NCBI GenBank assembly: GCA_945859605.1
Contig: OX243817.1
Span: 31,873,924-31,937,923 of the forward strand
DNA: 64,000 bases
Origin: Lumbricus rubellus
Taxonomy: Eukaryota; Annelida; Clitellata; Crassiclitellata; Lumbricidae
Reading direction: 5' to 3'
Positions 19,986 to 35,876 of this stretch are shown here, piece after piece. Made by a program: the position numbers and the translations under genes. Within the stretch, counting starts at the first letter, position 1. Each line of letters starts with the position of its first letter. The notes below the pieces were generated by a model. The model saw only the letters and a list, made by a program, of their open reading frames with translations. It was not told the DNA's origin and did not search any database.

Positions 19986-20553
19986 GGGACTCTTTCTTTT
20001 CTTCTTGTGTCATAGCTGTGGATTGCCCCACCCTCCCCATGCACAAAAATAACCATCATATACTGTTGGCAACAACCTTGTTATAACATCTGAAACATGA
20101 ATAGTCTAATTTGATATTTCGTTTATCAGTCACTTTAAGTGAGCTGAGTGATTGAAAGCAGGTTTTGAACTGGCAGAGCAGTGTAGCATCTAAGCCTAGG
20201 GCAGATACAAACAGCAGGAACAGCACGTTTTATAAGTCTTTTAAGAATGGACCTATAGGTGTTAGTTTAGTTGGCAAATACTATAAATTCAGGCTGTTTG
20301 CCCAATAGTCATTACTATATAATATTAAAGAAAATTATAGTCATAATGTGAAACCATGACAAGCACCCGTGTGACTGGTTTTGATATCAGACTTCTAGCT
20401 TTTAAAATGATCACATTATGTTTGGTTGCTTAAGTAGTGGGATAACTACTGTATCAGAAGCCGAGATATTGAGTAACGGAGTTGTTTCAACCTTTGTTTC
20501 GTTTAGGTAAAGCTGGTTTTTACTGCCGCCATCCGATGACACCATAGGAGAGA

Positions 20554-23253
20554 ATGTTGAAGCAATGCGACATCTGTTTGTATGCAGTGATGTTGTCACT
20601 GCTCCTCTGCTGCTCAGTGACCCCCTCCCTCACCTCATCCTTCGCTGCTCACGATAGAGTTCTCCTCTACAGCATAACAGAGGAAGTCCCTGCGGACACT
20701 TTCATTGCTAATCTCCTCATCGACTCTGGATTAGCGACGAAATATTCGCCAACCATCCATCCAAAACTCAGCTTTGTCTTCCTCAAAGAGATTCAACATC
20801 TCGAGCTGTTTTCTTTGGATGAGCGCAACGGGATCTTAAGAACAGGTCGGACTATTGACCGAGATGTTGTCTGTCCTGGACAACTCACCTGCATGGTCCG
20901 CTTGGATCTGGCCGTCCAACCATCCGCTTACTTTGAAGTCGTCAAAGTCGAGGTTTCCATATTGGATATCAACGATAACAGCCCGACTTTTGAGGACGTC
21001 CGATTTCATGTTGTCATTTCGGAAAGCACTCCACCTCTCGACAGGTTTCCTCTTCCCTGCGCCACGGACGTGGACAGCTTCGCCAACGGAGTTGTCGAAT
21101 ACCGACTCCTCTCCGTGACGAGTCACTTTCAACTGGACGTGAAGAACGACTCGATGGGAAGACCAAAAGATGTCTATCTTGTTCTACTGAAGGAACTGGA
21201 CCGTGAAGAGAAGGAGCATTACGAGCTGTTGATGGCTGCTTACGACGGTGGGGTCCCTCGCAGATCGGCCGTTCTCACAATTGCCGTTCAAGTGGGCGAC
21301 GTCAACGACCACAGTCCGAAGTTTGAGCAGCAGACGTACAACGTCAGCGTCGCCGAGAACATGGCGATCGGTGCGACGGTCGTGCGACTGTCGGCCGCCG
21401 ACGCCGACATCGGTCCGAACGGTCACGTTCGATATCGGTTCTCGCAGCGAAGCGCCGCAAATTATGGAGATCTATTCGTAATTGACCCGGAAAACGGCGA
21501 TGTCGTTCTGCTGCAGACGCTCAATTATGCGTCGCAGAACGTCTACAGTCTGGGAGTAATCGCCGAAGACCAGGGCGAGTACTCGGTTCCTGCGTTGGCG
21601 GCTCTTATCATCACCGTCAATGACATAAACGATCATGCGCCGCAGATCATAATCGATGCGCTGAGTGCGAGTGGGTCGGTAGAAGTGAGGGAGAATGCCG
21701 ACGTGGCTACGTTCGTCGCGCACGTTTCCACCTTCGATAAGGACGGAGGCGATAACGGATTGGTGAGATGTTCGATCAATAACATCAACTTTAAATTGAT
21801 TCAGATCTACGATGGTGAATACAAACTCGTGACGGCCAGGGCTTTTGACCGCGAGGCGATGCACCGCTACGAGGTCGTCATACGGTGTCACGACATGGGC
21901 GAACCACGAATGTTCGTCAACAAAGCCATCATTGTGAACGTTGCGGATGTCAATGATAACCATCCGGTGTTCACGCACAGTGTGTACAATGCGTCCGTGC
22001 AGGAGAACCTTTCGTGGGGTAGCTTCGTCGTGAGGGTCAGCGCCCACGATCCTGATGAAGCGGCCAATGGGGAGATCGCCTACATGTTGGATAGCGATGC
22101 CGATCAACGCTTTCACATCGACCCAGACACGGGTGTCATCACAACACTCGCGGGGCTTGACCGTGAGACATCAGAATTGGTGGAGTTTCACGTTCTGGCT
22201 GCAAACAAGGGCGAACACAGTCTGGTGTCACGTGCGAAGATACGTGTCCACGTCACGGATGTTGACGATGAACCACCGAAGTTTCTCAGCGAGAAGTACG
22301 CGTTCGATGTATTCGAGAATCAACCGCCGAGAACGGAGGTTGGTCAGGTGATGGCGATGGATCGGGATCTATCTCCGTTCAACGCTTTTGTGTTCGTCAT
22401 CCGAAACAGTAAAACGTTCGCGGTCGATCCGAAATCCGGAGTCATCTACACGAAGAGAACGCTCGATCGAGAATCGGAGAGTCGGTTTGAGGTTGCGATC
22501 GAAGTTCAGAGCAGCACGGTTATAATAAAGCGTAATATTGCGATCGTTTTGATAAACGTGGTCGACACGAACGATAACGCTCCGAACATCACCTTCCCGA
22601 ATGACGTCAACCGCACGGTGATTGTCGGCTCACTGCTCAACGTTTACGAAGTCATATGCACTGTGCAGAGCCACGATTCCGATGTCGGGGTCAACTCCGT
22701 GCTGTCCTACGAGATTCTCAATGCGACGAATCTATTCGGCATCGAACCGGCCACCGGACAGGTTCGCCTGCTGAAGGAACTCATATCCCACGTCAACGAG
22801 ACATTTGTGCTGATTGTAAAAGTGTCCGATGGTGGCCAGCCATCGTTGTTCTCCACGGCCACACTATATGTTATGATCGTTGACGGACATCATCCGGCTT
22901 TCGGTGGATTTCCCCGAACGCAGAACCAGTGGATTTGGTTGGCCGACATGAGACTTCTGATCATCGCTGGAATCACAGCCATCTGCTTCGTGTTGATTGT
23001 TCTTCTCGTGGCGGCCATCTTGTTGGTGCGACGAAGGAATAGTCAACGTCGAGCAAAGACACGGTTGGCGATGGCGATGATGAAGAACAATGCGACATCG
23101 GTGGATCATCATCATCGAGATGAAGGAGCGGCGAAGGATGATGAAGATGATGCGGATTCGTTGAATCGGATGAAGATGATGATGAACGACGGGAAGATGG
23201 TTCGCATGAAAGATATTTCGTACACGGAACTCAACTCTGACGTACCGTCTAAT
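20554..23253 (+). CDS. Protocadherin, large first coding exon (delta-1-like)
   Basis: Encodes a calcium-dependent cell-adhesion receptor of the plasma membrane. The start is the first in-frame ATG before a hydrophobic signal peptide (residues about 8-31). Seven cadherin repeats follow, six closed by Ca2+-binding linkers: DINDNSP (138), DVNDHSP (249), DINDHAP (357), DVNDNHP (465), DVDDEPP (569) and DTNDNAP (671). The seventh ends in VDGHHP just before a transmembrane helix (about 801-825) and a basic stop-transfer. EC1 carries the protocadherin CX5C loop (C107-C113). A single exon for the whole ectodomain is typical of protocadherins. Exon 1 ends after exactly 900 codons at a consensus donor (AAT|GTAAGT). 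The reading frame runs on for 28 codons into the intron (to 23340), so a short read-through isoform is possible. CG content is far higher than in the flanks. Confidence 0.95.
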
Positions 23254-26200
23254 GTAAGTGATTCTCTTACAGTACACTACTTCCTCAAGATCAGTTCAAA
23301 TATATATTTATATATCAAATACATTCAAATATATATATAAATATATATATACTGTAAATATGCATATTTTATATATATATATATATATTTAAATCGTCTT
23401 GGTTGCATTTTTCAATCATCTTGGAGTTTTTTGCATGTACAAATTGCATATGAAACAGTGTATACGAGTATTATTATTTCCAATGAACTATATAGGAACT
23501 AGAATGCTCGTTATGTCTTGTCATGCACTATTAGCTTCTTAAATGTCCAATTCCGCTGGGGTTCGTTTTTCCAATTCATGGAAATTTTTCTCAGTTTTGG
23601 GAACTACCTTCTAATAATGAGTGTGGAGCCCACAGGCAGTTTCCCTAAAATGGTTAAATATTATCAATAATTGTTTACCAAAGACACCTCCGATCATACG
23701 TTAAATCTAAGTTGCTTTATCTCACCTCGTACTTAGGCAAACAAATTATATACCAAATATCCAACACAATAAAATGAGATATATAATATTATATACATGT
23801 ATATATAATTCTTATAGATATCTATATGTGTGTCAGAGATCTATAGAATAGTTAATGTAGGTGGATGATTTGAAATCTAATATAATCTGTAGGACATATA
23901 GAAGAACTGTGTGCACAAATACCTAAACTGTTGGCGTCAGAACATCAGAGCTCTTAATAATGTAATGCTTAAGAGATGAAAACTGCCGACATGTAAACAG
24001 ATCGGCAGAATACAGTGACTGATTATACCGCCCTCCTTCCTTCAGTTCTGAGCGTCCATGGTGTAGTTGTTATTGAGTTGCGTCATGTAAGCTTAGTGGT
24101 GCTGAGAGTTGGAAGCCATTGAAAGATATGCTAACAAGGCAGAGTTGAGTTGAGTGCTGAGCTATGACTTTTTGTTTACAGAACCGTTTGTCAAACGGAT
24201 AAACCAACAGCATTTGAAGATAACGATGTAGGAAACGTTAGAATAGTCTAATTCTGTAGTTGTCAGTGAAAGCTTTTGAATAGTCTATTTCTGTGGATGT
24301 TAATGAAGACGTGGGTGTCATTTACAGGTGAATTAACTTGCCCTCTGGGACTGTGGGAGTATAATCTGCAGCTTAACTCTTTAAATGCATATTGTGATTA
24401 AAGCTGTGACACCTTGAGTTTCAGTAAACATATGGGTCAAAATTACAGGGCAAATGATGAATGAAACTTGACAATACCGGATGAAGACTGCTTTTCTGCT
24501 GAATAAAAACTACATCTTAGATTGGCATTGGAGTACCTAACTACCTCTTAATTACACTAAACTATAAAGATATTCTTTGAGCTGTTAATGAGTAAGAAAA
24601 GATAAAAAATTTGGCATCATCAAAAGACATTTTTATGCTAATGAGTAAGAAAAGACATAAATTTTAGTGTCATCAGCACAGAAATGATACCTGGCAGATA
24701 ATGACTACCAGGCAGTGTACCTATTGGTGTGCTAGATTCTATAAACAACAGAACACCAGATACTTGTGAAATACCACCTGTTAACATCACCACCCGTTGA
24801 CATAGCACTGGACCAACAAATACAGCTTACTTACTTAAAGCCATACAGCACCATGCATTGGCAGAGGTAGGTAGCAAACGATTGAAGAGCAAGACAATGG
24901 AAAGGAGGGTGGACCAGGGTGGCTCATAAAAAATGTTTACAAGCAGTACCTGGGCATTCATTGCCGGAAGTGGAACTGCAGCCATGACCTCAATTGACCT
25001 GAGGTGGGGCTGGGTCATTAGGTCACATAAACCTGCTGTGATAAACATGGAAAGAAAAGAAAGTCTCCCACCAATTGCGTAGTGCTGAGAACCACTCACC
25101 ATTGGAAAAAGGTTGGAGGAGTATTTTATCAGAAATTAATGCTGGTTTATCAATCTCTTGAAGACTGAAACAACCTTATAATTATAGAATTATATATATA
25201 TATATAATTATATATATAATATATGTGTGTTTATATATACTTGCTGACTTATTACAGGCAAGTAGACCTACATATATAAAATGAATGCCCACAAAAGAAG
25301 GCATGGGATGTTGGAGCATAATTCTGAAGACAAAAAACATTTAGTTGGTCTATTATAATTAATCTATATACCGGTACCGGTCTATTGCACGGTTACTAAA
25401 TGAAGATATATCTCAGTTTATCTCTCTCTCAAGTTTGGTGACTTTTTAGACTTCCCTTTGCAAATTGAATTGATAAACTTTGAGACAGCAGCCATGCTTA
25501 TCTATAAAATGGCTTCATTTTTTGCACTCGTTGTAAAGTCGCTTTCAGTATAAAACCATTGTAGTTTAGAGTCTTAGAGGCTTTAGACCTACTTCTGTGT
25601 GCATTGGGTAGACGCCAACGTGACAGGATACAGCATCAAACACCTAAATTTTTATACTTTTAGGTTTATGCGAGAAAAGATTGCGGTAATTTGTTCCATG
25701 GTTCAGATAGGCCACGAAAACCTATCCAATGTACACAATGCTTTAAATAAAACAAGCAATTAATTAATTAAATAAATCTTCAAAAAGCCGTTTAAGACAA
25801 CGCAGGGAATTTCTGTTTGTTCTCTCAAGGAGAAACCTTCAAGCAATTGCCTGTTTTCTTTTGTAACAACACTAGCAGTGCTTTCTCTGAGGAAAGCTAT
25901 TGTTGGAAGTATGGTAACATGCTTGCACAAAGATCAGAGGGACGAAATTTCAATAATTCCCCCCCCCCCCCCACTGCCCTATAAGTTTGACTCAGTCTTT
26001 AACTCTTTAGATGGGGGGGACTTTAAAATGAGTACAGAACAGTCAGTACATTGCAGATTCATCTAATTCGACTCCTGCCAAGCTTGGAATATCATCAGAA
26101 AACTGTCAAAATGCAAGCAGACGCTGAATACAGTGGCTGGATTATGCAGGCGTTATTTTTTTTATTTGGAAAGGCGCTATGCAATGCATTTAATGTAATA

Positions 26201-27071: not shown

Positions 27072-27077
27072 ATAATG
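27072..27077. repeat. Polinton target-site duplication, left
   Basis: ATAATG directly precedes the element's AG terminus and is repeated exactly at 35871-35876. A 6-bp duplication is the Polinton/Maverick signature. Confidence 0.95.
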
Positions 27078-27182
27078 AGTAGTAAAGGAGATCATTTTCT
27101 GGACCACTCAAAACAACAATTAAGCTAATTGAAAGTGACAGCTCTGTAAAGGTCCTTTTCCAAACCACGTCAAAACAAAATG

Positions 27183-27381
27183 ATTAATTACTTCTTTGAT
27201 CTATATAGGAAACAGCCTGGTCTAGGAAAATGCTGACTAATCACTTCTTTGATGTATATAGGAAACAGCCTGGTCTAGGAAATAATGCAATAGCAATTAT
27301 TGTTTTGATTTACATATGATTAATTACTTCTTTGATGTCACTGGTCCAGGAAAAGAGACTGGTTTAGGAAATAATGCTGAC
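27183..27381 (+). repeat. Three subterminal direct repeats in the left TIR
   Basis: Three related units of about 52-63 bp (27183-27236, 27237-27288, 27319-27381), each with ANTCACTTCTTTGAT-like and CTGGTCTAGGAAA-like blocks. All three are mirrored in the right arm. They are candidates for integrase or replication-factor binding. Confidence 0.8.
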
Positions 27382-27448
27382 GCTACATTTCCTTTGATGA
27401 TGAATAACACTCTTATGGGTGCATCTCCCTTACAGACAAACCAACATT

Positions 27449-27514
27449 CCTGTCTGTCTGTCTGTCTGTCTGTCTGTCTGCCCGTCTGTCTGTCTGTCTG
27501 TCTGTCTGTCTGTG
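27449..27514. repeat. (CTGT)n array inside the TIR
   Basis: A tetranucleotide array with one CCCG interruption, present at the same place in both arms (right arm about 35419-35489). It was therefore part of the element before insertion. Confidence 0.95.
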
Positions 27515-27946
27515 TGACCTCTTTGTATACTGCAGATGTGTACAATAAATTATTATTCCTTCTCAAGGCATTGCGCCCCCTAGCTCCCGCCAGCACTCTT
27601 GGACACTGTGCAATAAATTATTATTATCAGAGACGGCCTTTGAGTGTATTCAACCTTTAATTGTTGATGCACACGTGAACCGATATAGCATGTGGCATGT
27701 CTCAAAGAAGCACCACGAATGATCAAACATAACGGTCTTATGCGGCGCGCACCGTTCGAATGATCTATAGACCTTTAATGCAAAGACGCTTGTCTCATCA
27801 CACACCCTTTTATCGCATACATCTGTCTATATGCACCTCAATTCGCTTGGACAGTAACACATTACCACATACGCATTGCACGCACGAATAAATGTCACAA
27901 CAAAGTATTATCCATTCTTATTCATGTATTATACATTCTTACCTCT

Positions 27947-28150
27947 CTTCCTCCACACCCTCCTTTTCTCCTCTTCCTCCACACCCTCCTTTTCCCCTCT
28001 TCCTTCACACCCTCCTTTCGACTCTCTTCCATCACACCCGCCTTTCGACTCTCTTCCTTCACACCCTCCTTCCGACTCTCTTCCTTCACACCCTCCTTTC
28101 CCCCTCTTCCTTCACACCCTCCTTTCCCCACTCTCTTCTCCCACACCTTC
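27947..28150. repeat. Pyrimidine-rich minisatellite in the Polinton
   Basis: About eight imperfect units of 22-26 bp around CTCTTCCTTCACACCCTCC, between the left TIR and the protease gene. ORFs on both strands across it are artefacts. Confidence 0.9.
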
Positions 28151-28252
28151 CAAATACTCTTATTCGCATTCTTAGCCTCGCCTTTTAAATCATTGCAGCA
28201 AATTCATTCACGCACGTTGTAAAGAACACAAGGCTTTTAAATTGAATCAACA

Positions 28253-28705
28253 TTATTTATTAATATCATGCAAAAACCTATGAACTAAAAAGTCGTTTAA
28301 TCCAGTGTCTCTTGTAAAATTGTTGCAAACTGCATTTATATTAAGTCCTCTACTTCGATGTAATGCATAAAAAATACAATAATGCCCACAAAATCTACTT
28401 ATTAAACTCTGAATTTGATTATTTGTGTAAATCCAACGAGTACAATGCTTGTGTAGAAATGTTCTGAAAGGCGCGTCTGGTGGATTCCCCAATGAGTCGA
28501 AGAACTCTCCATAATTTGGGCTTTCGATATATAACACCACCCAGTGGATACCAGGCCGACCGTACGTGTCTGTATTGCATACGAATATAGCGGGTCTATT
28601 TGTATTAATCCACTTGGGTAGACGATTGCATGCAAAGACTCCCACGAACATGGTCGCACATCTGGGATCTCTTCGTAGAATATTTTCTATCGTAATGCCA
28701 TCCAT
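28253..28705 (-). CDS. Polinton adenain-like cysteine protease (PRO)
   Basis: A 150-residue protease of the adenovirus endopeptidase/Ulp1 clan, which matures capsid proteins in adenoviruses and probably in Polintons. Visible active-site residues, in adenain order, are His54 (GIHW), Asp70 (FFDSLG), Gln99 and Cys106 (FCGHYC). The seven-residue Gln-to-Cys spacing matches the known family pattern. It is the last gene of the minus-strand cluster, six bases after the capsid stop. AATAAA overlaps its last two codons (28256-28261) and may serve as the poly(A) signal. No frame damage. Confidence 0.9.
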   Translation of the reverse strand: MDGITIENILRRDPRCATMFVGVFACNRLPKWINTNRPAIFVCNTDTYGRPGIHWVVLYIESPNYGEFFDSLGNPPDAPFRTFLHKHCTRWIYTNNQIQSLISRFCGHYCIFYALHRSRGLNINAVCNNFTRDTGLNDFLVHRFLHDINK

Positions 28706-28711
28706 CTTTCT

Positions 28712-30034
28712 CTAATTGTTGTAGTCGAATATTACGTTGCGTGATCTGTCAATCTCGAGAATATTTTCAAATTCTGCAAATGCTATGACATTTATTGTAG
28801 CTTCCAACGCCTGAGAGAACTTCATATCCACCCGCACATTTCCCGATTTGACTAAATTGAAGTGGTCGCCCTCTGCCAAGTCAGGAGTTAAATCGAATGC
28901 ATACAAACAATATCCATTCGCATAATCTTCTCTGGAGATGTCGTTATCGTCGTTTCTCTGCCATTTACCAGTGCCCATGAAGAGCGAGGCATAGGCATTC
29001 ACAAACTGGCCAGTTGCAAAGTTAGTTTCCAGGGGTTTTATACTTTGCTGCTGACCGTCCAGATATACTTTTAATTGAGACAAGTTCATGTGTTTGAAAT
29101 TGTATGGGCTTTTGGTGTAGGTGCCATTGAATGCGTCGTTGTCAATGCATCCAAACACGATGCGCGTCGGAAGTTGTCCAGAGAAGAGGCTTTCTTGTGT
29201 CACGTCCAAATTTCCTCTAGGAACCGTAAAAGTCTTGCAAACAACTCTGCGAATGGGAAATTTCAGATTTCCAATCTCCAATGCTTTAGCATGAGCAAGA
29301 AAGACAGAGGGACTTAGTCTAACTTTTCTTACATACAATTTGCACTCTAATATTTTTACTTTGTATGTGGGCCCCACAGCCGAAGACATAAGACAGAATG
29401 CATCCTTATTACGCACGAAGCGAATTTTTATATTAATGTCGTTTGGCAAGAAGCGTTCCTGAAAGAAGAGATCGCTGTGAATACCGCCCAACATATCGAC
29501 CACACGTCCTTCGTCGGTCAGAGCACTGCGCTTCTTGAATCCAATGTTTTCACCAGCATCGTCGTGCGGATTAGCTTCCTCAAAGCGTCTGGCAGTGTCC
29601 TTGTAAAATAATGCAGAGGTGAGTTGAGAATTTTTGCTTGAACTGCCATAACTTAGTAGAGTTTCCAAGTAGCTGCGGTACGCATACGTGTTGTTTGACG
29701 CTGTGACCAATGTATCGTTTAAAGTGATGTCTACCTCAGAAAATAGACTGTGCATGAAAAGGTTGACAGGACCAACGTGATCGCCAGCATCTGTAGCATC
29801 ATTATTCGCTCGCACAATAGAGGCTCTGACGTACAGTTGAGTGTTTGACAGATCTAGATAGTCTTGTCCGGTGCCAGTAATGCTAAATTCTATAGGTGTA
29901 CCCTGTGAAATGGTTGCTATTGGATTATATTCCACGTACGAGCCGGCTTCTATGCTTGTCTGCGTAGCAGGCACGCTAAACAGGTCCAGTTCGCTCTTTG
30001 CACACTCGCAAGACTGAGGATGAACGAATGCCAT
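28712..30034 (-). CDS. Polinton major capsid protein candidate
   Basis: A 440-residue protein beginning MAFVHPQSCE. The start at 30034 is chosen because it falls one base after the previous stop; an in-frame ATG at 30049 would add five residues and overlap it. Similar proteins are common in invertebrate genomes, often labelled F54H12.2-like, and travel with Polinton integrases and ATPases. The length and beta-rich pattern fit the double jelly-roll major capsid role, but the fold is inferred, not seen. Uninterrupted frame, no signal peptide or membrane helix. Confidence 0.75.
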   Translation of the reverse strand: MAFVHPQSCECAKSELDLFSVPATQTSIEAGSYVEYNPIATISQGTPIEFSITGTGQDYLDLSNTQLYVRASIVRANNDATDAGDHVGPVNLFMHSLFSEVDITLNDTLVTASNNTYAYRSYLETLLSYGSSSKNSQLTSALFYKDTARRFEEANPHDDAGENIGFKKRSALTDEGRVVDMLGGIHSDLFFQERFLPNDINIKIRFVRNKDAFCLMSSAVGPTYKVKILECKLYVRKVRLSPSVFLAHAKALEIGNLKFPIRRVVCKTFTVPRGNLDVTQESLFSGQLPTRIVFGCIDNDAFNGTYTKSPYNFKHMNLSQLKVYLDGQQQSIKPLETNFATGQFVNAYASLFMGTGKWQRNDDNDISREDYANGYCLYAFDLTPDLAEGDHFNLVKSGNVRVDMKFSQALEATINVIAFAEFENILEIDRSRNVIFDYNN

Positions 30035-30035
30035 T

Positions 30036-30440
30036 TTAAACTGTTCCAAATATGTCTTCCTTGATTCTTTTCTTATTTCTTCTCAGCAATCTCTTACGTC
30101 TTTTTCGCCCGCTGCCACTCTGCGTATTAAAATCGTTTGAACTTGTAAACGCCTTTATACCTTCTGGGACGCGACGCTTGGCCGCGTCTACGAACTGTCC
30201 GCCGTCGGCGACATCGTTGGCAATCTGGAGTCCTGTTCTCAGTACCTGTTTGCCAAGCGCTTTAGCACCAGTCTGTATAAGTGGCCACGCATTTCTAAAG
30301 AGTCCACCAAGAAAACTACCCAAGCCGTGACCGCGCTGAAGACGAGCGCCTTGAAATACAGACATACCATTGCCACTCTGTTGCATATAATAGTCTTCGT
30401 ACGCCGATCGGCTAGCATCACAGCAATATGGTTTCTTCAT
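30036..30440 (-). CDS. Polinton pVI-like minor protein candidate
   Basis: A 134-residue protein starting MKKPYCCD. The ATG overlaps the upstream TGA as ATGA, so I prefer it to an upstream ATG at 30491. It has a Gly-rich amphipathic segment (GHGLGSFLGGLFRNAWPLI) followed by an Ala/Lys helix, and a strongly basic C-terminus (GRKRRKRLLRRNKKR). This resembles membrane-active and DNA-associated minor proteins such as adenovirus pVI. The analogy rests on composition and position, so the function is inferred. Confidence 0.6.
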   Translation of the reverse strand: MKKPYCCDASRSAYEDYYMQQSGNGMSVFQGARLQRGHGLGSFLGGLFRNAWPLIQTGAKALGKQVLRTGLQIANDVADGGQFVDAAKRRVPEGIKAFTSSNDFNTQSGSGRKRRKRLLRRNKKRIKEDIFGTV

Positions 30441-31261
30441 TGTAAAAGGTAAGGTATCTTGCAATGCCGGAAGTGTAGTGTTAGTATGCACTTTCCGCTT
30501 TCGAATGGCACAGGCGAGCCAGTGTCGGTCCTTATATCTATCTCGATAGAGTCGAAATTCTTCTGCTGTAGCGGTACGTAGATGGGCTTTTCGTAATTCG
30601 TACGCACGCTGTCGCCGCTTTTTCCACTAACGTTTACGATCCTCAGCAAGGGAGCCTTCGTGTCGCCCACTGGCACTTGCTCGAGAACGTTACAATAAAT
30701 ATACAGAGACGAAAATCCACGATTTACATCACACGCATTAGAGCCCATGAATTCAAAAACGTAATCCTCGTCTTCATCGTAATTGAGAATTGGATTCTGA
30801 CGCGCAGCAACACCCAACATTGAACATATGACGGGCGAAAACTGTACGCTCGCACCCCTGTTCATATCACCGTTGAGTCGCTTCGTTACAGGATCGTAGC
30901 TAAACTTTGGAAATTCTGCAATGTCCAACTCGTCCGCAACTTGAAATATAAATTTGTTTATAGAATCGATAAGATTTTGTGCAGTTTCGTAATATCCAGC
31001 AGGCAAACGGGTCGTTCTATGCATGGTCCCTGGTAGTATGTCGCCATTTTCCGAAAACACTTCATGTGTATACGATATTCTACTGTCGTTTCTATCTAAA
31101 TTGGTCCACGTATGAGGATATTGAATTTCCAATAAAGCGACTTCCCAGTCACCACTTAGAGAAATGGAATTCTCCAATCTTGAGATAAAATTTGTTATCG
31201 TATTTTGGGGATAGAATTGCATAGAACTGTTGCTTGGTAAGGTGAGATAGAAATGGGCCAT
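30437..31261 (-). CDS. Polinton penton-like minor capsid protein, copy B
   Basis: A 274-residue protein beginning MAHFYLTLPSNSSM. It belongs to a family found beside Polinton capsid genes, probably the minor (penton-like, single jelly-roll) capsid protein. The N-terminal block (YP-NT---F---LEN-ISLSG-WE-AL-E-QYPHTW) and C-terminal block (YVPLQQK-F--IEI--R) align with its neighbour, copy A, which ends two bases upstream. The two are tandem paralogues of clearly lower overall identity, so the duplication is old. The reading frame is intact. Confidence 0.7.
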   Translation of the reverse strand: MAHFYLTLPSNSSMQFYPQNTITNFISRLENSISLSGDWEVALLEIQYPHTWTNLDRNDSRISYTHEVFSENGDILPGTMHRTTRLPAGYYETAQNLIDSINKFIFQVADELDIAEFPKFSYDPVTKRLNGDMNRGASVQFSPVICSMLGVAARQNPILNYDEDEDYVFEFMGSNACDVNRGFSSLYIYCNVLEQVPVGDTKAPLLRIVNVSGKSGDSVRTNYEKPIYVPLQQKNFDSIEIDIRTDTGSPVPFESGKCILTLHFRHCKIPYLLQ

Positions 31262-31263
31262 TT

Positions 31264-32124
31264 TTATATGTTGCTACACTGTCTGAAATGAAGTATAACG
31301 AACGACTTCCCATGCTCGAATGGTATGGACTTGCCATTGTCACCTCTCATATATATTTCTATAGCGCCGAAAGTCTTTTGTTGAATCGGTACATATATTG
31401 CATTTCTGTATATAACATGCATGGTGTCCCCGCTTTTGCCGTCTATATTAACTACGCGTAGCAAAGGCGCTTTCGCATCGCCAAGCGCTACAGATTCCAA
31501 AATGTTACAATACACGTACACGTGTGAAAATGCTGGATTTATATTGCAGGTCATATCAGAAATCCATTCCTTGTCGGGCATCTCGTCCCACGCTTTGACA
31601 TAATCTTCGTATCGACTTTCGTGTACATAGTGGCCGTAATCGAAATTTTCGATAACTTTCTGATTTTCTCCTATACCAAAAATATCGCACAGATGTGAAG
31701 AGAATCCAATACTTGTAGCGAGATTTATTTTACCTGTGAGTCTTTTGGTTACTTTATCGTATTTAAATTTTGGGTGACGGACGAGCGAATGCAATTTGGT
31801 CGCAGACTCTATTTTCGAGTTCACCGCATGAACTATATCCTCCAGGCTTTCGTAATAGCCAGCAGGAATATGACACAATTCTTGTATAGAATACCACTCA
31901 TCTTTGGGATTTGTTCTTTTAGGAATATGGTTATACATAAAGTCGCCCTGTCCACTTTGCACATTGTACCACGTGTGTGGGTATTGCAGCTCTATCAAAG
32001 CAGCTTCCCATCGACCAGAAAGGGAAATGTCATTTTCCAATTTCGTTGTAAAGTGCGCAGTTGTATTGCTGGGGAAATGGGACATGGAAGAATTGCTTGG
32101 TAAAGTTAGATAGAAGTGCGCCAT
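31264..32124 (-). CDS. Polinton penton-like minor capsid protein, copy A
   Basis: A 286-residue paralogue of copy B. The ORF is open back to 32220 but inside the integrase 3' end. The ATG at 32124 is chosen because it gives the same MAHFYLTLPSNSSM start as copy B. Compared with B it has an extra segment of about 20 residues in the middle (near EDYVKAWDEMPDKEW). Whether one copy forms pentons and the other has another vertex or surface role cannot be told from sequence. Confidence 0.7.
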   Translation of the reverse strand: MAHFYLTLPSNSSMSHFPSNTTAHFTTKLENDISLSGRWEAALIELQYPHTWYNVQSGQGDFMYNHIPKRTNPKDEWYSIQELCHIPAGYYESLEDIVHAVNSKIESATKLHSLVRHPKFKYDKVTKRLTGKINLATSIGFSSHLCDIFGIGENQKVIENFDYGHYVHESRYEDYVKAWDEMPDKEWISDMTCNINPAFSHVYVYCNILESVALGDAKAPLLRVVNIDGKSGDTMHVIYRNAIYVPIQQKTFGAIEIYMRGDNGKSIPFEHGKSFVILHFRQCSNI

Positions 32125-32173
32125 TGTCGTTACTACTTGCATGCGTGCTCTGACAGACTGCAAGAATGTGAAG

Positions 32174-33208
32174 CTAAAGGCTGAATATATCGTGTGTCCA
32201 AGAGTTGAATTTAGTGTCATAGCCTTTCCACTTTACAAAGTATTCAGTCTTACCGCGCCGCTTACGGCTTTTCAGAATTTTATCAACCGTGTAAACATCG
32301 TCATCCTTTAAAATTCTCTGCAACTCAAATTCGTAGAATTTTCCCTTTATCTGTTCACCAGCCAAATCTTCGAGTTCGTACGTTACTGGATCGGTAGGCA
32401 CACGCCTTATAATTTTAAAAATTTCAGTCGACCATGTTGGTAAATATCCTTTTTGAAAAGCCATCCTAGCCTTTACTATTCTGACCTTGTCGTTCACTTC
32501 ATATTTCCAATCGGGCGGGCGTTTCTTTTCACCATACAAACGTTTGATAATACTATTTTCATTTTCCTTAGAAACCTCAATGGGGGCCATGCCTATGCTT
32601 CTATGGTGCGTGTGGTTGTACGAATGTACGAGGTCTTGCAAAATGTCTATGTACCTATAAGTATTCTTATAAGTAAAGTATTTCCACATCTTGGACTTGA
32701 GAGTTCTATTGAAACGCTCAACTATAGAGGCCTTTATGTCGCTATTTTCAGATGTGTAAAAGCGAATGGCATTTTTGCGTAGCATATTTTGAAAGTTTTT
32801 ATTAAGGAACTCTGTTCCCTTGTCAGTTTGCAGATTGGCTGGCTGTTTGTCGGTAAGAATGATGGAAAATGCCTCAGTCAGGTCCACACCGGACTTTGAT
32901 TTAAGGGGTACCACCCAAGCATATTTAGAAAATACATCTATACAGGTTAAAATATATTTATTTTTATCATTATATTTCGACAATGCTGAAAGATCGGCCA
33001 GATCGGCCTGCCAAAGATCGCAAATACCAACAGAGAAAGTCTTTCGTCGCCTAAAGTTCAATCTAACAGGTTTATGTAACGTGTATGCATCTTGTTTGGT
33101 CAGCCAATTTTTAACATCTTTTTCTTTAAATTGTCCATTAGCATGTCTCTGAAAGGATGACACGCCTGCAAAGCTGCCAGGTGTCTTTGGATCAAAGTAC
33201 GACTCCAT
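32174..33208 (-). CDS. Polinton DDE integrase with chromodomain
   Basis: A 344-residue retroviral-type (rve) integrase that would join the element's ends to target DNA, making the 6-bp duplication. Catalytic acids are visible as Asp69 (WQADL), Asp129 (QTDKGTEF) and Glu164 (VERFNR), with 34 residues between the last two. A C-terminal chromodomain (about 300-344, with EYFVKWKGYD and an NSW motif) probably binds histone tails and guides insertion. No N-terminal HHCC zinc finger is evident. All catalytic residues are intact, so it could be active. Confidence 0.95.
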   Translation of the reverse strand: MESYFDPKTPGSFAGVSSFQRHANGQFKEKDVKNWLTKQDAYTLHKPVRLNFRRRKTFSVGICDLWQADLADLSALSKYNDKNKYILTCIDVFSKYAWVVPLKSKSGVDLTEAFSIILTDKQPANLQTDKGTEFLNKNFQNMLRKNAIRFYTSENSDIKASIVERFNRTLKSKMWKYFTYKNTYRYIDILQDLVHSYNHTHHRSIGMAPIEVSKENENSIIKRLYGEKKRPPDWKYEVNDKVRIVKARMAFQKGYLPTWSTEIFKIIRRVPTDPVTYELEDLAGEQIKGKFYEFELQRILKDDDVYTVDKILKSRKRRGKTEYFVKWKGYDTKFNSWTHDIFSL

Positions 33209-33222
33209 CGATATTCAAAAAA

Positions 33223-33876
33223 TCAGTAAGTTATCCAACTCGACAGACTTTGTTGTTTTCCACGAATGTTCTTTGGAGTAAGTGTTGAGGATTCTTCGAT
33301 GGGGCTATTAATATACATCCAACGTTCTTGATTTCCTATCAACTCGCGAGGTATGTTTGAGTCTTTCAGAGCTTCTGCCAAGAGTCTCCAGCCGGTGGGT
33401 GGAGAAGCCGTCGTACGTTTCCTCATCAGATCGTTGACCAAATCGACCATGTGAGTTTTCGGAATAGTTGCATCCTTCAAAATAAGTTCACCTTTAGAAG
33501 TCCAAGACACGTCGGGATTGCTCTTCATGTGCGACAAGAGTCTAGCAGCTTGAGTTTTCCATTTCTTTGGTACCGTTTCCAAGACTTGCGTCTCTATACT
33601 GCTGCTGCTGCTAGATTTGCTGGGGTCGCCCGCTTCCGCCGCTTCCACTGCACCTTCTTTGGAATCGAACTTGGTAACTATGCTGGGCTTGTCAATGTGT
33701 AAGTATCGATTCAAGCTGTTGGTGTACAGTTTGGCTTTATCATCGTCTGGAATATTCCTATGCAGAATGTCGTACATCTGTGTATCCAATTTAGACAATG
33801 TTTTGTCTAGCATAGTCTCTTTCCATTTTTCTATCTGTCTAGGTTCCACCAAAACCATCTTCTTTGTGTGTTCCAT
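33223..33876 (-). CDS. Polinton-associated conserved protein, function unknown
   Basis: A 217-residue charged, mainly helical protein beginning MEHTKKMVLV. The N-terminal half (PRQIEKWKETMLDKTLSKLD) looks coiled-coil. A Ser run (about 93-99) separates it from a C-terminal domain with W-KTQAARLLSHMK and PPTGWRLLAEAL. Related proteins accompany Polinton capsid genes in other invertebrates, but I know no established function. It starts one base after the preceding gene's stop and ends 14 bases before the integrase start. Confidence 0.7.
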   Translation of the reverse strand: MEHTKKMVLVEPRQIEKWKETMLDKTLSKLDTQMYDILHRNIPDDDKAKLYTNSLNRYLHIDKPSIVTKFDSKEGAVEAAEAGDPSKSSSSSSIETQVLETVPKKWKTQAARLLSHMKSNPDVSWTSKGELILKDATIPKTHMVDLVNDLMRKRTTASPPTGWRLLAEALKDSNIPRELIGNQERWMYINSPIEESSTLTPKNIRGKQQSLSSWITY

Positions 33877-33877
33877 A

Positions 33878-34207
33878 CTATATTTTATTGCTTAGCAATG
33901 TGCCCAGAAAAGAAAGCACAGGAGTCAGTAATGCACCTATGAAGCCACCAGTCTGTACTATACGCTTTTTGATTTTTCTTCGAATCTTTTTCGATGCAAG
34001 TTTTCTCAACTTGTGTTTGAATCGAGCGAGTCTTTTCTTCTGACTCTCTTTCAAAGGCACCGTGCCTTTTAAAATGTTGAGTGCACACTCGCAAAGACAG
34101 CAAAGCAGAGAAGAATTACAGTCTTTCAAAATCTGTTTCCTTACTTTAGGCGAAGACTCTTTAAGCAGTCTGAGTTTCTCAAATTTCTCCTCTATGGTTG
34201 CAGACAT
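33878..34207 (-). CDS. Polinton small basic core-like protein
   Basis: A 109-residue protein starting MSATIEEKFEKL. This ATG is preferred to one at 34309, which would overlap the ATPase gene. There is a short Cys cluster (LLCCLCECAL), then a Lys/Arg-rich stretch (about 65-90), then a hydrophobic C-terminus (QTGGFIGALLTPVLSFLG). The pattern recalls adenovirus core or minor peptides such as pX/mu, but that is analogy. A TATAAAG lies about 35 bases upstream. Confidence 0.65.
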   Translation of the reverse strand: MSATIEEKFEKLRLLKESSPKVRKQILKDCNSSLLCCLCECALNILKGTVPLKESQKKRLARFKHKLRKLASKKIRRKIKKRIVQTGGFIGALLTPVLSFLGTLLSNKI

Positions 34208-34240
34208 TTTGAGTGAATGAGAGATGAGAGTCTGTGAGGA

Positions 34241-34247
34241 CTTTATA
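34241..34247 (-). promoter_or_regulatory. Possible TATA box upstream of the core-like gene
   Basis: On the minus strand TATAAAG is followed about 25-30 bases later by a TCATTC initiator-like motif and then the ATG at 34207. It lies in the ATPase 3' end, so it could give that gene its own start site. Confidence 0.3.
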
Positions 34248-34248
34248 T

Positions 34249-34863
34249 TCATTTCCTCATATATACGTAATGCACCTCGCCCGGAAAAATATTTGTTCTC
34301 AGCCGGCAACGTTCGTCAGTTTCTGGTTTCAGATCGATCAAAAGATAGCCGAAAGGTGCCATTGTTGCATCGTGGAATGCTTCTATCATAAAATTGGCTT
34401 TGCCTGGAAACATCTGTCGTGCTAATATTGCAACCTGCGTGCTGTCTCTAACATTTTTGAAAAGAACAAAGTAGTGGGCATTCAGGCTGATGGTTCTTGT
34501 ATGCTTGCCACTGTAGAAAAGATTTTGCGTCAGGTAGAGTATAGAAACGTTCATGTGATGACTAATTTTGGTGAATAAGTTTGTAACCCTCTGGTCAGTT
34601 TCGCTCATAAGGTCGTCTAGCACAAGTAGAGTCTTTTGCTTTCCATCGAAAATATTCAAGTCGGGCAATCCTTCGTGAAATTGAACTTGTGTGTATTTGT
34701 CGAAAATTTCTTGGTAAATGCCATAACACCATATAATTTTTTCTATACCAGGCTTGACCATGTATTCTAAATGATCTATAAAACGTAAAGTGAATTTCGT
34801 CTTTCCACAACCGCTGGGGCCGCTGATTATAGTAGAGAATGGATGTATCCAAGTTGCATCCAT
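34249..34863 (-). CDS. Polinton A32-like DNA-packaging ATPase
   Basis: A 204-residue P-loop ATPase of the FtsK/HerA superfamily that probably pumps DNA into capsids. Walker A is GPSGCGKT (residues 15-22), Walker B is LLVLDD (about 93-98), and a YLTQNLF block fits the downstream polar sensor of A32-type ATPases. Length is usual for Polinton ATPases. It lies 38 bases after the RING gene and 41 before the core-like gene. Confidence 0.9.
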   Translation of the reverse strand: MDATWIHPFSTIISGPSGCGKTKFTLRFIDHLEYMVKPGIEKIIWCYGIYQEIFDKYTQVQFHEGLPDLNIFDGKQKTLLVLDDLMSETDQRVTNLFTKISHHMNVSILYLTQNLFYSGKHTRTISLNAHYFVLFKNVRDSTQVAILARQMFPGKANFMIEAFHDATMAPFGYLLIDLKPETDERCRLRTNIFPGEVHYVYMRK

Positions 34864-34901
34864 AATGAATAGTAAACGTCTTTTGTCGTGTTCTCTCCTT
34901 T

Positions 34902-35222
34902 TTATGCCATGTATATTCTAACAGTTCCAAGGATGCGCTCGCAGCAAGAGGGGCAGTGTGTTGCAATGTCTGCACAAGGCTCACACATATTTATATGTGC
35001 ACATGGAAGAGATAGTATTTGTACTTGTCTTTCTTTACAGACTTTACAAATGACAGACTTCTTTAGATTTTCGTTGTCAAATTTCAGTTTCAAGGTATTA
35101 TACTTTACATGTTTTTCGTTCTCACTTTCAACGCTTTCCTCATCTTCACTTTGGCACATACAGCAGTCACATTTGTAGTTTCCACACACGTCCATTTCAC
35201 ATTTACTAATAGTCGGACACAT
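34902..35222 (-). CDS. Polinton RING-finger protein (putative E3 ligase)
   Basis: A 106-residue protein. The C-terminal RING (about 59-95) reads C-x2-C ... C-x-H-x3-C-x2-C-x6-C-x2-C (CKVC, PCAHINMCEPC, CPSC), the C3HC4 layout of IAP/Mdm2-type E3 ubiquitin ligases. The N-terminus has a separate Cys cluster (CDCCMC) and an acidic stretch. It lacks a BIR domain. It is the first gene downstream of the right TIR, and may act against host defence or apoptosis, but that is inference. Confidence 0.85.
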   Translation of the reverse strand: MCPTISKCEMDVCGNYKCDCCMCQSEDEESVESENEKHVKYNTLKLKFDNENLKKSVICKVCKERQVQILSLPCAHINMCEPCADIATHCPSCCERILGTVRIYMA

Positions 35223-35279
35223 GTCAACCGTTCTTTAGAATATAAAATTAATAATGAAATGCCATGTAATGAATAGAGA

Positions 35280-35287
35280 CTTTTATA
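35280..35287 (-). promoter_or_regulatory. TATA box of the Polinton gene cluster
   Basis: A consensus TATAAAAG on the minus strand, about 58 bases before the RING start codon and just inside the right TIR edge. It is well placed to start transcription of the co-directional genes. Confidence 0.5.
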
Positions 35288-35316
35288 TTGATGCAGCATG
35301 TTGCCGCCATATTTTC

Positions 35317-35421
35317 ATTTATTGCACAGTGTCCAAGAGTGCTGGCGGGAGCTAGTGGGCGCAATGCCTTGTGAAGGAATAATAATTTATTGTACACATC
35401 TGCAGTATACAAAGAGGTCAC

Positions 35422-35455
<34 letters not shown>

Positions 35456-35870
35456 GGGCAGACAGACAGACAGACAGACAGACAGACAGGAATGTTGGTT
35501 TGTCTGTAAGGGAGAATAGGGAGATGCACCCATAAGAGTGTTATTCATCATCAAAGGAAATGTAGCGTCAGCATTATTTCCTAAACCAGTCTCTTTTCCT
35601 GGACCAGTGACATCAAAGAAGTAATTAATCATATGTAAATCAAAACAATAATTGCTATTGCATTATTGCCTAGACCAGGCTGTTTCCTATATACATCAAA
35701 GAAGTGATTAGTCAGCATTTTCCTAGACCAGGCTGTTTCCTATATAGATCAAAGAAGTAATTAATCATTTTGTTTTGACGTGGTTTGGAAAAGGACCTTT
35801 ACAGAGCTGTCACTTTCAATTAGCTTAATTGTTGTTTTGAGTGGTCCAGAAAATGATCTCCTTTACTACT
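35317..35870 (-). repeat. Polinton right terminal inverted repeat
   Basis: 554 bp, inverted relative to 27078-27618, ending in ACT at the outer edge. It includes the CAGA array and three subterminal repeats. The homology stops abruptly at 35317. Confidence 0.95.
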
Positions 35871-35876
35871 ATAATG
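35871..35876. repeat. Polinton target-site duplication, right
   Basis: ATAATG, identical to 27072-27077. Confidence 0.95.

What the first reader, a model, noticed from the sequence alone, without database searches (positions are those of the whole stretch)
27078..35870. Intact, young Polinton with capsid, integrase, protease and ATPase genes but no DNA polymerase B
Both termini, the 6-bp duplication and ten open genes are present in only 8.8 kb, yet the polymerase that defines Polinton self-synthesis is missing. Genes run from 28253 to 35222 with gaps of 0-49 bases. The remaining internal spaces (27619-28252 and 35223-35316) are far too small for a polymerase. Known Polinton theory has PolB copying the excised element, so this one must use a host polymerase or a helper, or have a different replication route. 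It could be a parasitic or satellite-like lineage that keeps its own capsid.
Basis: partly seen in the sequence, partly recalled or inferred. Interest (0 to 1): 0.93.

Follow-up and report, generated by a model that had tools for sequence, protein, structure and literature searches.

The report
Polinton split into two complementary elements
A virus-like mobile element in an animal genome carries the genes for making a shell and for inserting into DNA but not the gene for copying itself, and that missing copying gene sits in a separate, similar-sized element with the same ends, as if one virus genome had been split in two.

Summary
Window 27078-35870 is an 8,793-bp Polinton-type insertion with near-identical terminal inverted repeats (TIRs), a 6-bp duplication and ten ORFs on one strand, including integrase, ATPase, capsid protein and protease, without PolB. 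It is not a one-off deletion. In the host assembly (787 Mb), 8 two-ended copies of 8.76-8.86 kb have our capsid and/or integrase gene under these TIRs. Four other two-ended insertions with the same TIR tip (9.10, 9.10, 9.21, 16.7 kb) have an open 1,176-1,196-aa PolB. The one read in full (16.7 kb, in two halves) has no match to our ten proteins. None of 27 TIR-bounded copies has both in the capped lists. Sampled genome-wide, 128 capsid/integrase and 108 PolB places give 1 pair within 25 kb (0.88 expected by chance), while 85 of 117 integrases have a listed capsid gene within 12 kb. The TIR goes with the matching subfamily: 10 of 13 integrases of our family, 0 of 104 others; 4 of 6 nearest PolBs, 0 of 33 others. 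Integrase and PolB show purifying selection. Best reading: a bipartite Polinton, a replication element and an integration/morphogenesis element acting on shared TIRs. A third content class (~8 kb) is largely unread.

The parts
27072..27077 (.). target site duplication ATAATG (left)
27078..27618 (+). left terminal inverted repeat, starts AGTAGTAAAGGAGATC
   Evidence: the 16-nt tip occurs at 57 exact places in the assembly
27619..28252 (.). left inner space, no coding match; its first 293 bp are also present (93.5%) at the inner edge of the right TIR of the 16.7-kb PolB copy
28253..28705 (-). adenovirus-type cysteine protease (PRO), 150 aa
   Evidence: Pfam Peptidase_C5 E 4.8e-5, 23.5 bits against a cut-off of 21.3
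28712..30034 (-). major capsid protein (MCP, double jelly-roll), 440 aa from the likely ATG
   Evidence: 2362 relatives at E<=0.001, best 120 listed; model mean pLDDT 66, Foldseek matches PBCV-1, Sputnik and mavirus MCPs, best E 2.4e-13
30036..30440 (-). small basic protein at the PW position, 134 aa from the likely ATG
   Evidence: tblastn match at the same position in L003, L004, L009-L012
30437..31261 (-). penton-like protein b (PX position), 274 aa
   Evidence: tblastn to the gene at the PX position of other Polintons, e.g. L004 38%; no PDB sequence match
31264..32124 (-). penton-like protein a (tandem paralogue), 286 aa from a likely internal ATG
32174..33208 (-). integrase (rve core + chromodomain), 344 aa
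   Evidence: Pfam rve 7.4e-11, Chromo 1.4e-9
33223..33876 (-). orphan at the PZ position, 217 aa
   Evidence: 94 relatives; mostly helical model, no PDB match at E<=0.001
33878..34252 (-). small basic orphan at the PM position, 124 aa from the likely ATG
34249..34863 (-). packaging ATPase, 204 aa
   Evidence: Pfam Pox_A32 5.9e-5, 23.1 bits against a cut-off of 22.8; 53-54% to L002/L004
34902..35222 (-). RING-finger protein, 106 aa, next upstream of the ATPase, where PolB stands in four other Polinton loci
   Evidence: Pfam zf-C3HC4_3 1.2e-7; compare L004, L009-L011
35317..35870 (-). right terminal inverted repeat
35871..35876 (.). target site duplication ATAATG (right)

Best explanation
The element is one half of a bipartite Polinton. 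Element 1 (this one, ~8.8 kb) encodes integration and particle formation: integrase, packaging ATPase, capsid proteins, protease. Element 2 (~9.1 kb, same TIRs) encodes replication: an open ~1,190-aa PolB and, in the copy read, a PC4-like protein (PC4 binds single-stranded DNA; recalled). Each would act in trans on the shared TIRs: PolB starts copying at the ends of both, the integrase joins both to host DNA with 6-bp duplications, and the ATPase/capsid may package either. Together they add up to ~17.9 kb, a normal Polinton length. Shown: separate elements, same TIRs, same TSD length in the copies checked, complementary gene sets in what was read, purifying selection on integrase and PolB. Inferred: cross-use of the enzymes, packaging, co-transfer.
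For: (1) 27 two-ended copies with this TIR (26, one): 8 with a listed MCP and/or INT (8,762-8,855 bp), 4 with PolB (9,095; 9,100; 9,210; 16,749 bp), 15 with neither in the capped lists, 0 with both. In the four PolB copies the distance from PolB 3' end to the TIR tip is 1,560, 1,560, 1,565 and 1,561 bp (coordinates). (2) The 16.7-kb PolB copy matches our TIR over 331 nt at its left end (97.9%) and over the whole TIR at its right end (95.8%); TSD TTGGTT. (3) No tblastn match (E<1e-3) of our ten proteins in either half of that copy, nor in 30 of 30 PolB loci L070-L099, which reach about 1 kb past the PolB 3' end, the side on which the ATPase stands in L004, L010 and L011. (4) 128 capsid/INT and 108 PolB places: 1 pair within 25 kb, 0.88 expected by chance; linkage control: 85 of 117 INT have a listed MCP within 12 kb. 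(5) TIR places lie within 7.5 kb of 10 of 13 family-A INT, 0 of 23 B, 0 of 39 C, 0 of 42 D, 12 of 15 family-A MCP, 4 of 6 PolBs at 97-100% identity and 0 of 33 at 80-90% (P 1.8e-4). One of the 10 rests on a TIR match without a tip match, so 9 of 13 by tip alone; without the PolB that was found through its TIR, 3 of 5. (6) dN/dS: INT A against B 0.11-0.14 over 18 copies; PolB 0.115-0.129 against 9 loci of the ~88% group, 0.04-0.06 against 20 of 21 loci of the ~80-84% group, where dS is saturated (one not computable). (7) In 4 of 4 related loci that extend more than 1.5 kb upstream of the ATPase, PolB stands next upstream on the same strand (in L009 with one 364-aa frame between), so the all-in-one order looks ancestral.
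Against: Only one PolB element was read in full, and it is ~7.6 kb longer than the 9.1-kb ones; those are known from PolB coordinates plus, for C93, 1.5 kb at one end. Gene lists are capped (INT 117 scored of 2851, MCP 96 of 1472, PF03175 91 of 1619, PolB 39 of 93991) and chosen by similarity, so an unsampled all-in-one Polinton acting as helper could exist, and a divergent PolB inside families B-D would be missed: those were not measured end to end and their TIRs were not read. Fifteen copies with this TIR have neither set, so TIR sharing alone does not prove a two-part system; passengers also share TIRs. The PolB is only 30% identical over ~190 aa to the PolB of L004, whose integrase is 47% identical to ours, so the halves may have different origins. 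Two of 6 nearest PolBs and 3 of 13 family-A integrases are not near a TIR place. Some copies carry stops (INT in C15:21120702, MCP in C20:10521375).
Confidence: 0.7

Rival explanations
1. Satellite or parasite: the 8.8-kb element (and perhaps the PolB element) depends on an all-in-one Polinton that encodes everything and lies elsewhere in the genome or in an infecting virus.
For: Samples of INT and PolB places are capped, and one search had 2851 first-look candidates, so more divergent complete Polintons could be present.
Against: None of 27 TIR-bounded copies has both sets in the capped lists; the PolB copy with the matching TIR that was read lacks our genes.
Confidence: 0.15
2. Ordinary internal deletion derivative of a full Polinton, recently amplified.
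For: PolB is what is missing against the usual gene set (PMC8097293 section 7).
Against: 8 two-ended copies of nearly the same length; a RING gene stands in place of PolB; INT dN/dS ~0.12 between families A and B speaks for a functional lineage; no full-length parent with these TIRs was found among the copies classified.
Confidence: 0.05
3. The PolB element is an unrelated transposon that captured the TIRs by recombination; the capsid element replicates with a host polymerase.
For: PolB is distant from the PolB of related all-in-one Polintons; linear elements could in principle be copied by host repair synthesis (inference).
Against: The TIR is found with one capsid family and one PolB subfamily, both kinds have 6-bp TSDs, and PolB is under purifying selection.
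Confidence: 0.1

Closest known systems
Polinton/Maverick (Eupolintoviridae), vertebrate type
   Same: AGT-AGT/ACT-ACT ends, 6-bp TSD, TIRs of hundreds of bp, integrase, ATPase, protease, MCP, penton-position genes; genes on one strand as described for Xenopus (PMC8097293, section 7 read)
   Different: 8.8 kb against 12.7-24.6 kb for intact vertebrate elements; no PolB; RING gene in its place; tandem pair of penton-like genes
Adintoviruses (PolB + Hexon + integrase viruses; PMC11071296, passages seen)
   Same: virion gene set and chromodomain integrase; duplicate Pentons are noted in some adintoviruses
   Different: the definition needs PolB in the same genome. The passages describe related genomes lacking recognizable PolB and integrase, but no split Polinton
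Bidna-class parvoviruses (segmented, PolB-bearing; PMC11071296 passages)
   Same: a polymerase of adintovirus type in a virus group with up to twelve segments
   Different: parvovirus capsid and NS1 instead of the double jelly-roll capsid set
Tlr elements and Polinton-like viruses (PMC4028283, PMC11071308, passages)
   Same: capsid and ATPase, in Tlr also integrase, without a standard pPolB
   Different: they carry a helicase or polymerase-helicase fusion instead, on the same molecule

Membership tests
Polinton/Maverick | TIRs with AGT-type ends and a 6-bp TSD | tested here: met
   ends as in PMC8097293 section 7
Polinton/Maverick | rve integrase | tested here: met
Polinton/Maverick | C5-type protease and packaging ATPase | tested here: met
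   (both just over the Pfam cut-off); both match the genes at the same positions in L004
Polinton/Maverick | double jelly-roll MCP | tested here: met
   (model of moderate confidence, pLDDT 66)
Polinton/Maverick | penton (minor capsid) protein | tested here: inconclusive
   two paralogues match the gene at the PX position of other Polintons; no fold tested; no PDB sequence match for one
Polinton/Maverick | PolB in the element (one of the four core genes in PMC3671162, passage) | tested here: not met
   PolB found on separate elements with the same TIR
Polinton/Maverick | size 15-20 kb (PMC4028283) | tested here: not met
   8,793 bp
Adintovirus | PolB with N-terminal OTU-like domain plus recognizable Hexon in one genome | tested here: not met
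   no PolB in the element
Bipartite / segmented virus genome | components share terminal sequences | tested here: met
Bipartite / segmented virus genome | complementary essential genes | tested here: met
   only one PolB copy was read in full
Bipartite / segmented virus genome | components replicate and spread together | not testable with these tools
   needs particles, extrachromosomal DNA or expression data
Deletion derivative of a full Polinton | full-length parent with the same TIRs | tested here: not met
   0 of 27 TIR-bounded copies have both gene sets in the capped lists; 15 of the 27 are unread or read only at their ends

The most novel reading that the evidence does not exclude
A multipartite Polinton virus: at least two, possibly three, genome segments of ~8-9 kb with common TIRs, each a separate provirus, perhaps in several parallel lineages of one animal genome. 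Segment size would be set by one capsid, and segments would meet by co-infection or co-residence. This would be a double jelly-roll dsDNA virus with a split genome that also behaves as a two-part transposon.
Probability: 0.55. Interest if true: 0.95.

Novelty: new variant of a known kind. Interest (0 to 1): 0.9.

Why it matters
Polintons are described as self-synthesizing elements because polymerase and integrase travel together. Here they appear to travel apart while sharing ends, which makes replication in trans, and multipartite life in a double jelly-roll dsDNA lineage, directly testable. It may also explain PolB-less capsid-bearing Polintons elsewhere, and suggests that searches requiring INT and PolB close together on one contig (as in PMC8097293 methods, passage) would overlook such elements.

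Tried and rejected
Early guess 'cephalopod host', from a single-exon cadherin gene and simple repeats: not tested, dropped; the host is an unidentified, probably animal, genome with a 787-Mb assembly. Viral-contig scans with MCP, INT, their alignments and a penton-like protein (none; one weak locus, not examined). Genome contigs with the MCP alignment: none; with the INT alignment: 30 loci, of which L002-L016 were examined and the 15 weak ones (25-31% identity) were not. Fold of the 217-aa orphan: no match, so no sign that it replaces a polymerase. PHROGs: no match for the MCP and penton-like proteins, transposase families for the integrase. Papers: nine searches showed no split or bipartite Polinton in the titles and abstract starts listed; the passages of PMC12567637 holding 'bipartite' concern other viruses. 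The library holds only open-licence papers, and the paper that named adintoviruses is not held. Repbase was not available.
Full report
What is there. Window 27078-35870 is an 8,793-bp insertion with TIRs of 541 and 554 bp (538 of 554 alignment columns identical, 3 mismatches, 13 gap columns), termini AGTAGT//ACTACT and a 6-bp TSD ATAATG. Ten ORFs run on the minus strand: RING (34902-35222), ATPase (34249-34863), two orphans, integrase (32174-33208), two tandem penton-like paralogues, a small basic protein, MCP (28712-30034) and protease (28253-28705). Pfam supports RING, ATPase, integrase with chromodomain, and protease. The MCP has no Pfam match, but its model (mean pLDDT 66) matches double jelly-roll capsid proteins of PBCV-1, Sputnik and mavirus. 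PM, PZ, PW and PX are names by position only, after PMC8097293 section 7 (read). No PolB is present.

What related Polintons look like. A scan of prokaryote genome bins with the integrase alignment returned 30 loci. I examined 15 (L002-L016), which I read as eukaryotic DNA in bacterial bins (inference). The four with more than 1.5 kb upstream of the ATPase (L004, L009, L010, L011) all have PolB next upstream on the same strand, confirmed by PF03175 (4 of 4; in L009 a 364-aa frame lies between). The order PolB-ATPase-(PM-PZ)-INT-PX-PW-MCP-PRO is therefore the likely ancestral one, and here a RING gene stands where PolB should be.

The host genome. The window lies at G000:C7:31873924-31937923 in a 787-Mb assembly. 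A 323-bp TIR query scored 40 of 91 candidates, all at least 98% identical. The 25-nt TIR tip with up to 3 mismatches has 59 matches against 0 for the reversed control. Paired by coordinates these give 26 two-ended copies, 27 with one. Eight have a listed MCP and/or integrase of our family and measure 8,762-8,855 bp (six have both listed, two only the MCP). Four have PolB: 9,095, 9,100, 9,210 and 16,749 bp. Fifteen have neither in the capped lists, nine of them 7,516-8,512 bp long. None has both. In the four PolB copies the PolB 3' end lies 1,560, 1,560, 1,565 and 1,561 bp from the TIR tip (coordinates). TSDs of 6 bp were verified in 5 copies: the window, C21 and C15 (capsid type), C20 (third type), C7:25885432 (PolB type). 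The ends of the C15 and C21 copies that were fetched match our element's RING, ATPase, protease and MCP pieces at 100%. Some family-A copies carry a stop (integrase at C15:21120702 and C15:18522470, MCP at C20:10521375).

The PolB element. The 16.7-kb copy was read in two halves. It has an open 1,192-aa frame and, next to it on the other strand, a PC4-like ORF (PF02229, E 4.7e-22). The frame carries LDCNNLYG, KLMNNSIYGKT and TDTDS (seen in the translation; their meaning as PolB motifs is recalled). PF03175 was found by the genome search (84 bits), though the plain Pfam scan did not report it and gave only an Endonuclease_7 match below its cut-off; PMC5803895 (passages) lists an endonuclease VII domain in moth Maverick POLB. 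No tblastn match of our ten proteins was found in either half, and of its 22 frames of at least 100 aa the 17 given to Pfam showed no integrase or capsid domain. Its left end matches our TIR over 331 nt (97.9%), its right end over the whole TIR (95.8%) plus 293 bp of our left inner space (93.5%). In the 9,095-bp copy, 1.5 kb next to one TIR is 98.2% identical to the 16.7-kb copy and matches none of our proteins, which suggests that the longer one is a 9.1-kb element with about 7.6 kb inserted (inference).

Is the split general? The integrase query found four families: A 98-100% (13 places), B 92-94% (23), C 86-88% (39), D 78-81% (42). Thirty PolB loci, all the loci given, had none of our ten proteins beside PolB; they reach about 1 kb past the PolB 3' end and do not show the far 5' side. 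Of 128 distinct capsid/integrase places and 108 distinct PolB places, one pair lies within 25 kb (C5:22253163 and C5:22263331), 0.88 expected by chance; 85 of 117 integrases have a listed MCP within 12 kb, showing that real linkage is seen. The limits are that all lists are capped and selected by similarity (INT 117 scored of 2851, MCP 96 of 1472, PF03175 91 of 1619 with 89 matches, PolB 39 of 93991), and that elements of families B-D were not measured end to end.

Matching of ends. TIR places lie within 7.5 kb of 10 of 13 family-A integrases and 0 of 104 others, of 12 of 15 family-A MCPs, and of 4 of 6 PolBs at 97-100% identity and 0 of 33 others (P 1.8e-4). One of the 10 rests on a TIR match without a tip match (9 of 13 by tip alone), and the reference PolB was itself found through its TIR (3 of 5 without it). 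The exact 16-nt tip has 57 places (control 1 and 0). The ends thus go with one capsid family and one PolB subfamily, as expected if the two are partners. The TIRs of families B-D were not read.

Selection. Integrase dN/dS between families A and B is 0.11-0.14 (18 copies). PolB dN/dS is 0.115-0.129 against 9 loci of the ~88% group and 0.04-0.06 against 20 of 21 loci of the ~80-84% group, where dS is saturated (one not computable). Both genes have been kept functional over the divergence of the families.

Reading. The simplest account is a Polinton whose replication module (PolB, PC4-like) and integration/morphogenesis module are on separate elements of nearly equal size with common ends, used in trans. 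That the enzymes act across elements, that one capsid packages both, and that they travel together are inferences. The chief rivals are an unsampled all-in-one helper, or a PolB transposon that borrowed the TIRs. The PolB and integrase histories may differ: integrase is 47% identical to L004 while PolB aligns at only 30% over ~190 residues, so the partnership may have arisen by joining a PolB element to a Polinton that lost its own PolB. In the integrase tree (52 rows) the window's families A and B group with metagenomic proteins P0001 and P0002 (100/98 support), inside a set of 40 rows that leaves out the PolB-linked loci; the root is drawn at the midpoint and several MAG rows have long branches. 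Whether the metagenomic relatives are also split is unknown.

Literature. PMC3671162 (passages) lists PolB among four core Polinton genes; PMC8097293 (section 7 and passages) gives 12.7-24.6 kb and PolB in the first gene module; PMC4028283 (first part and passages) names PY as MCP and PX as penton; PMC11071296 (passages) reports related genomes lacking both PolB and integrase, duplicate Pentons, and segmented bidna-class viruses. The nine searches showed no split Polinton in the titles and abstract starts listed.

Noticed in passing
G000:C20:28524521-28532378, C2:3878132-3885987 and seven more of 7.5-8.5 kb: Copies with the same TIR and no PolB, MCP or integrase in the capped lists; in the one whose ends were seen (C20) the TIRs are at least 1.8 kb long (97% over 1,823 columns). 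Could be a third segment or passengers; the middles are unread.
   Followed up: partly
own-genome families A-D: MCP is far more conserved between families than integrase (family B 98-99% against 92-94%; family C mostly 95-98% against 86-88%), which may mean strong constraint or exchange of capsid genes between families.
   Followed up: no
window 30437-32124: Tandem pair of penton-like paralogues, where L004 and L009-L012 show a single gene at that position; L003 has a second copy beyond the protease.
   Followed up: no
L100:971-1477 and 8 of 30 PolB loci: PC4-like ORF beside PolB on the opposite strand, 85-89% identical between PolB subfamilies.
   Followed up: partly
window 20548-23340 (+): Cadherin-repeat gene in one open frame of 930 codons (Pfam Cadherin E 5e-92), about 3.7 kb from the insertion.
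   Followed up: no
L002-L016: Contigs filed in bacterial genome bins with Polinton-type integrases, most of them with further Polinton genes, probably eukaryotic DNA in the bins.
   Followed up: no
G000:C2:54059788-54077346 (17.6 kb), C6:5885044-5908761 (23.7 kb): Two long TIR-bounded copies with unread content.
   Followed up: no
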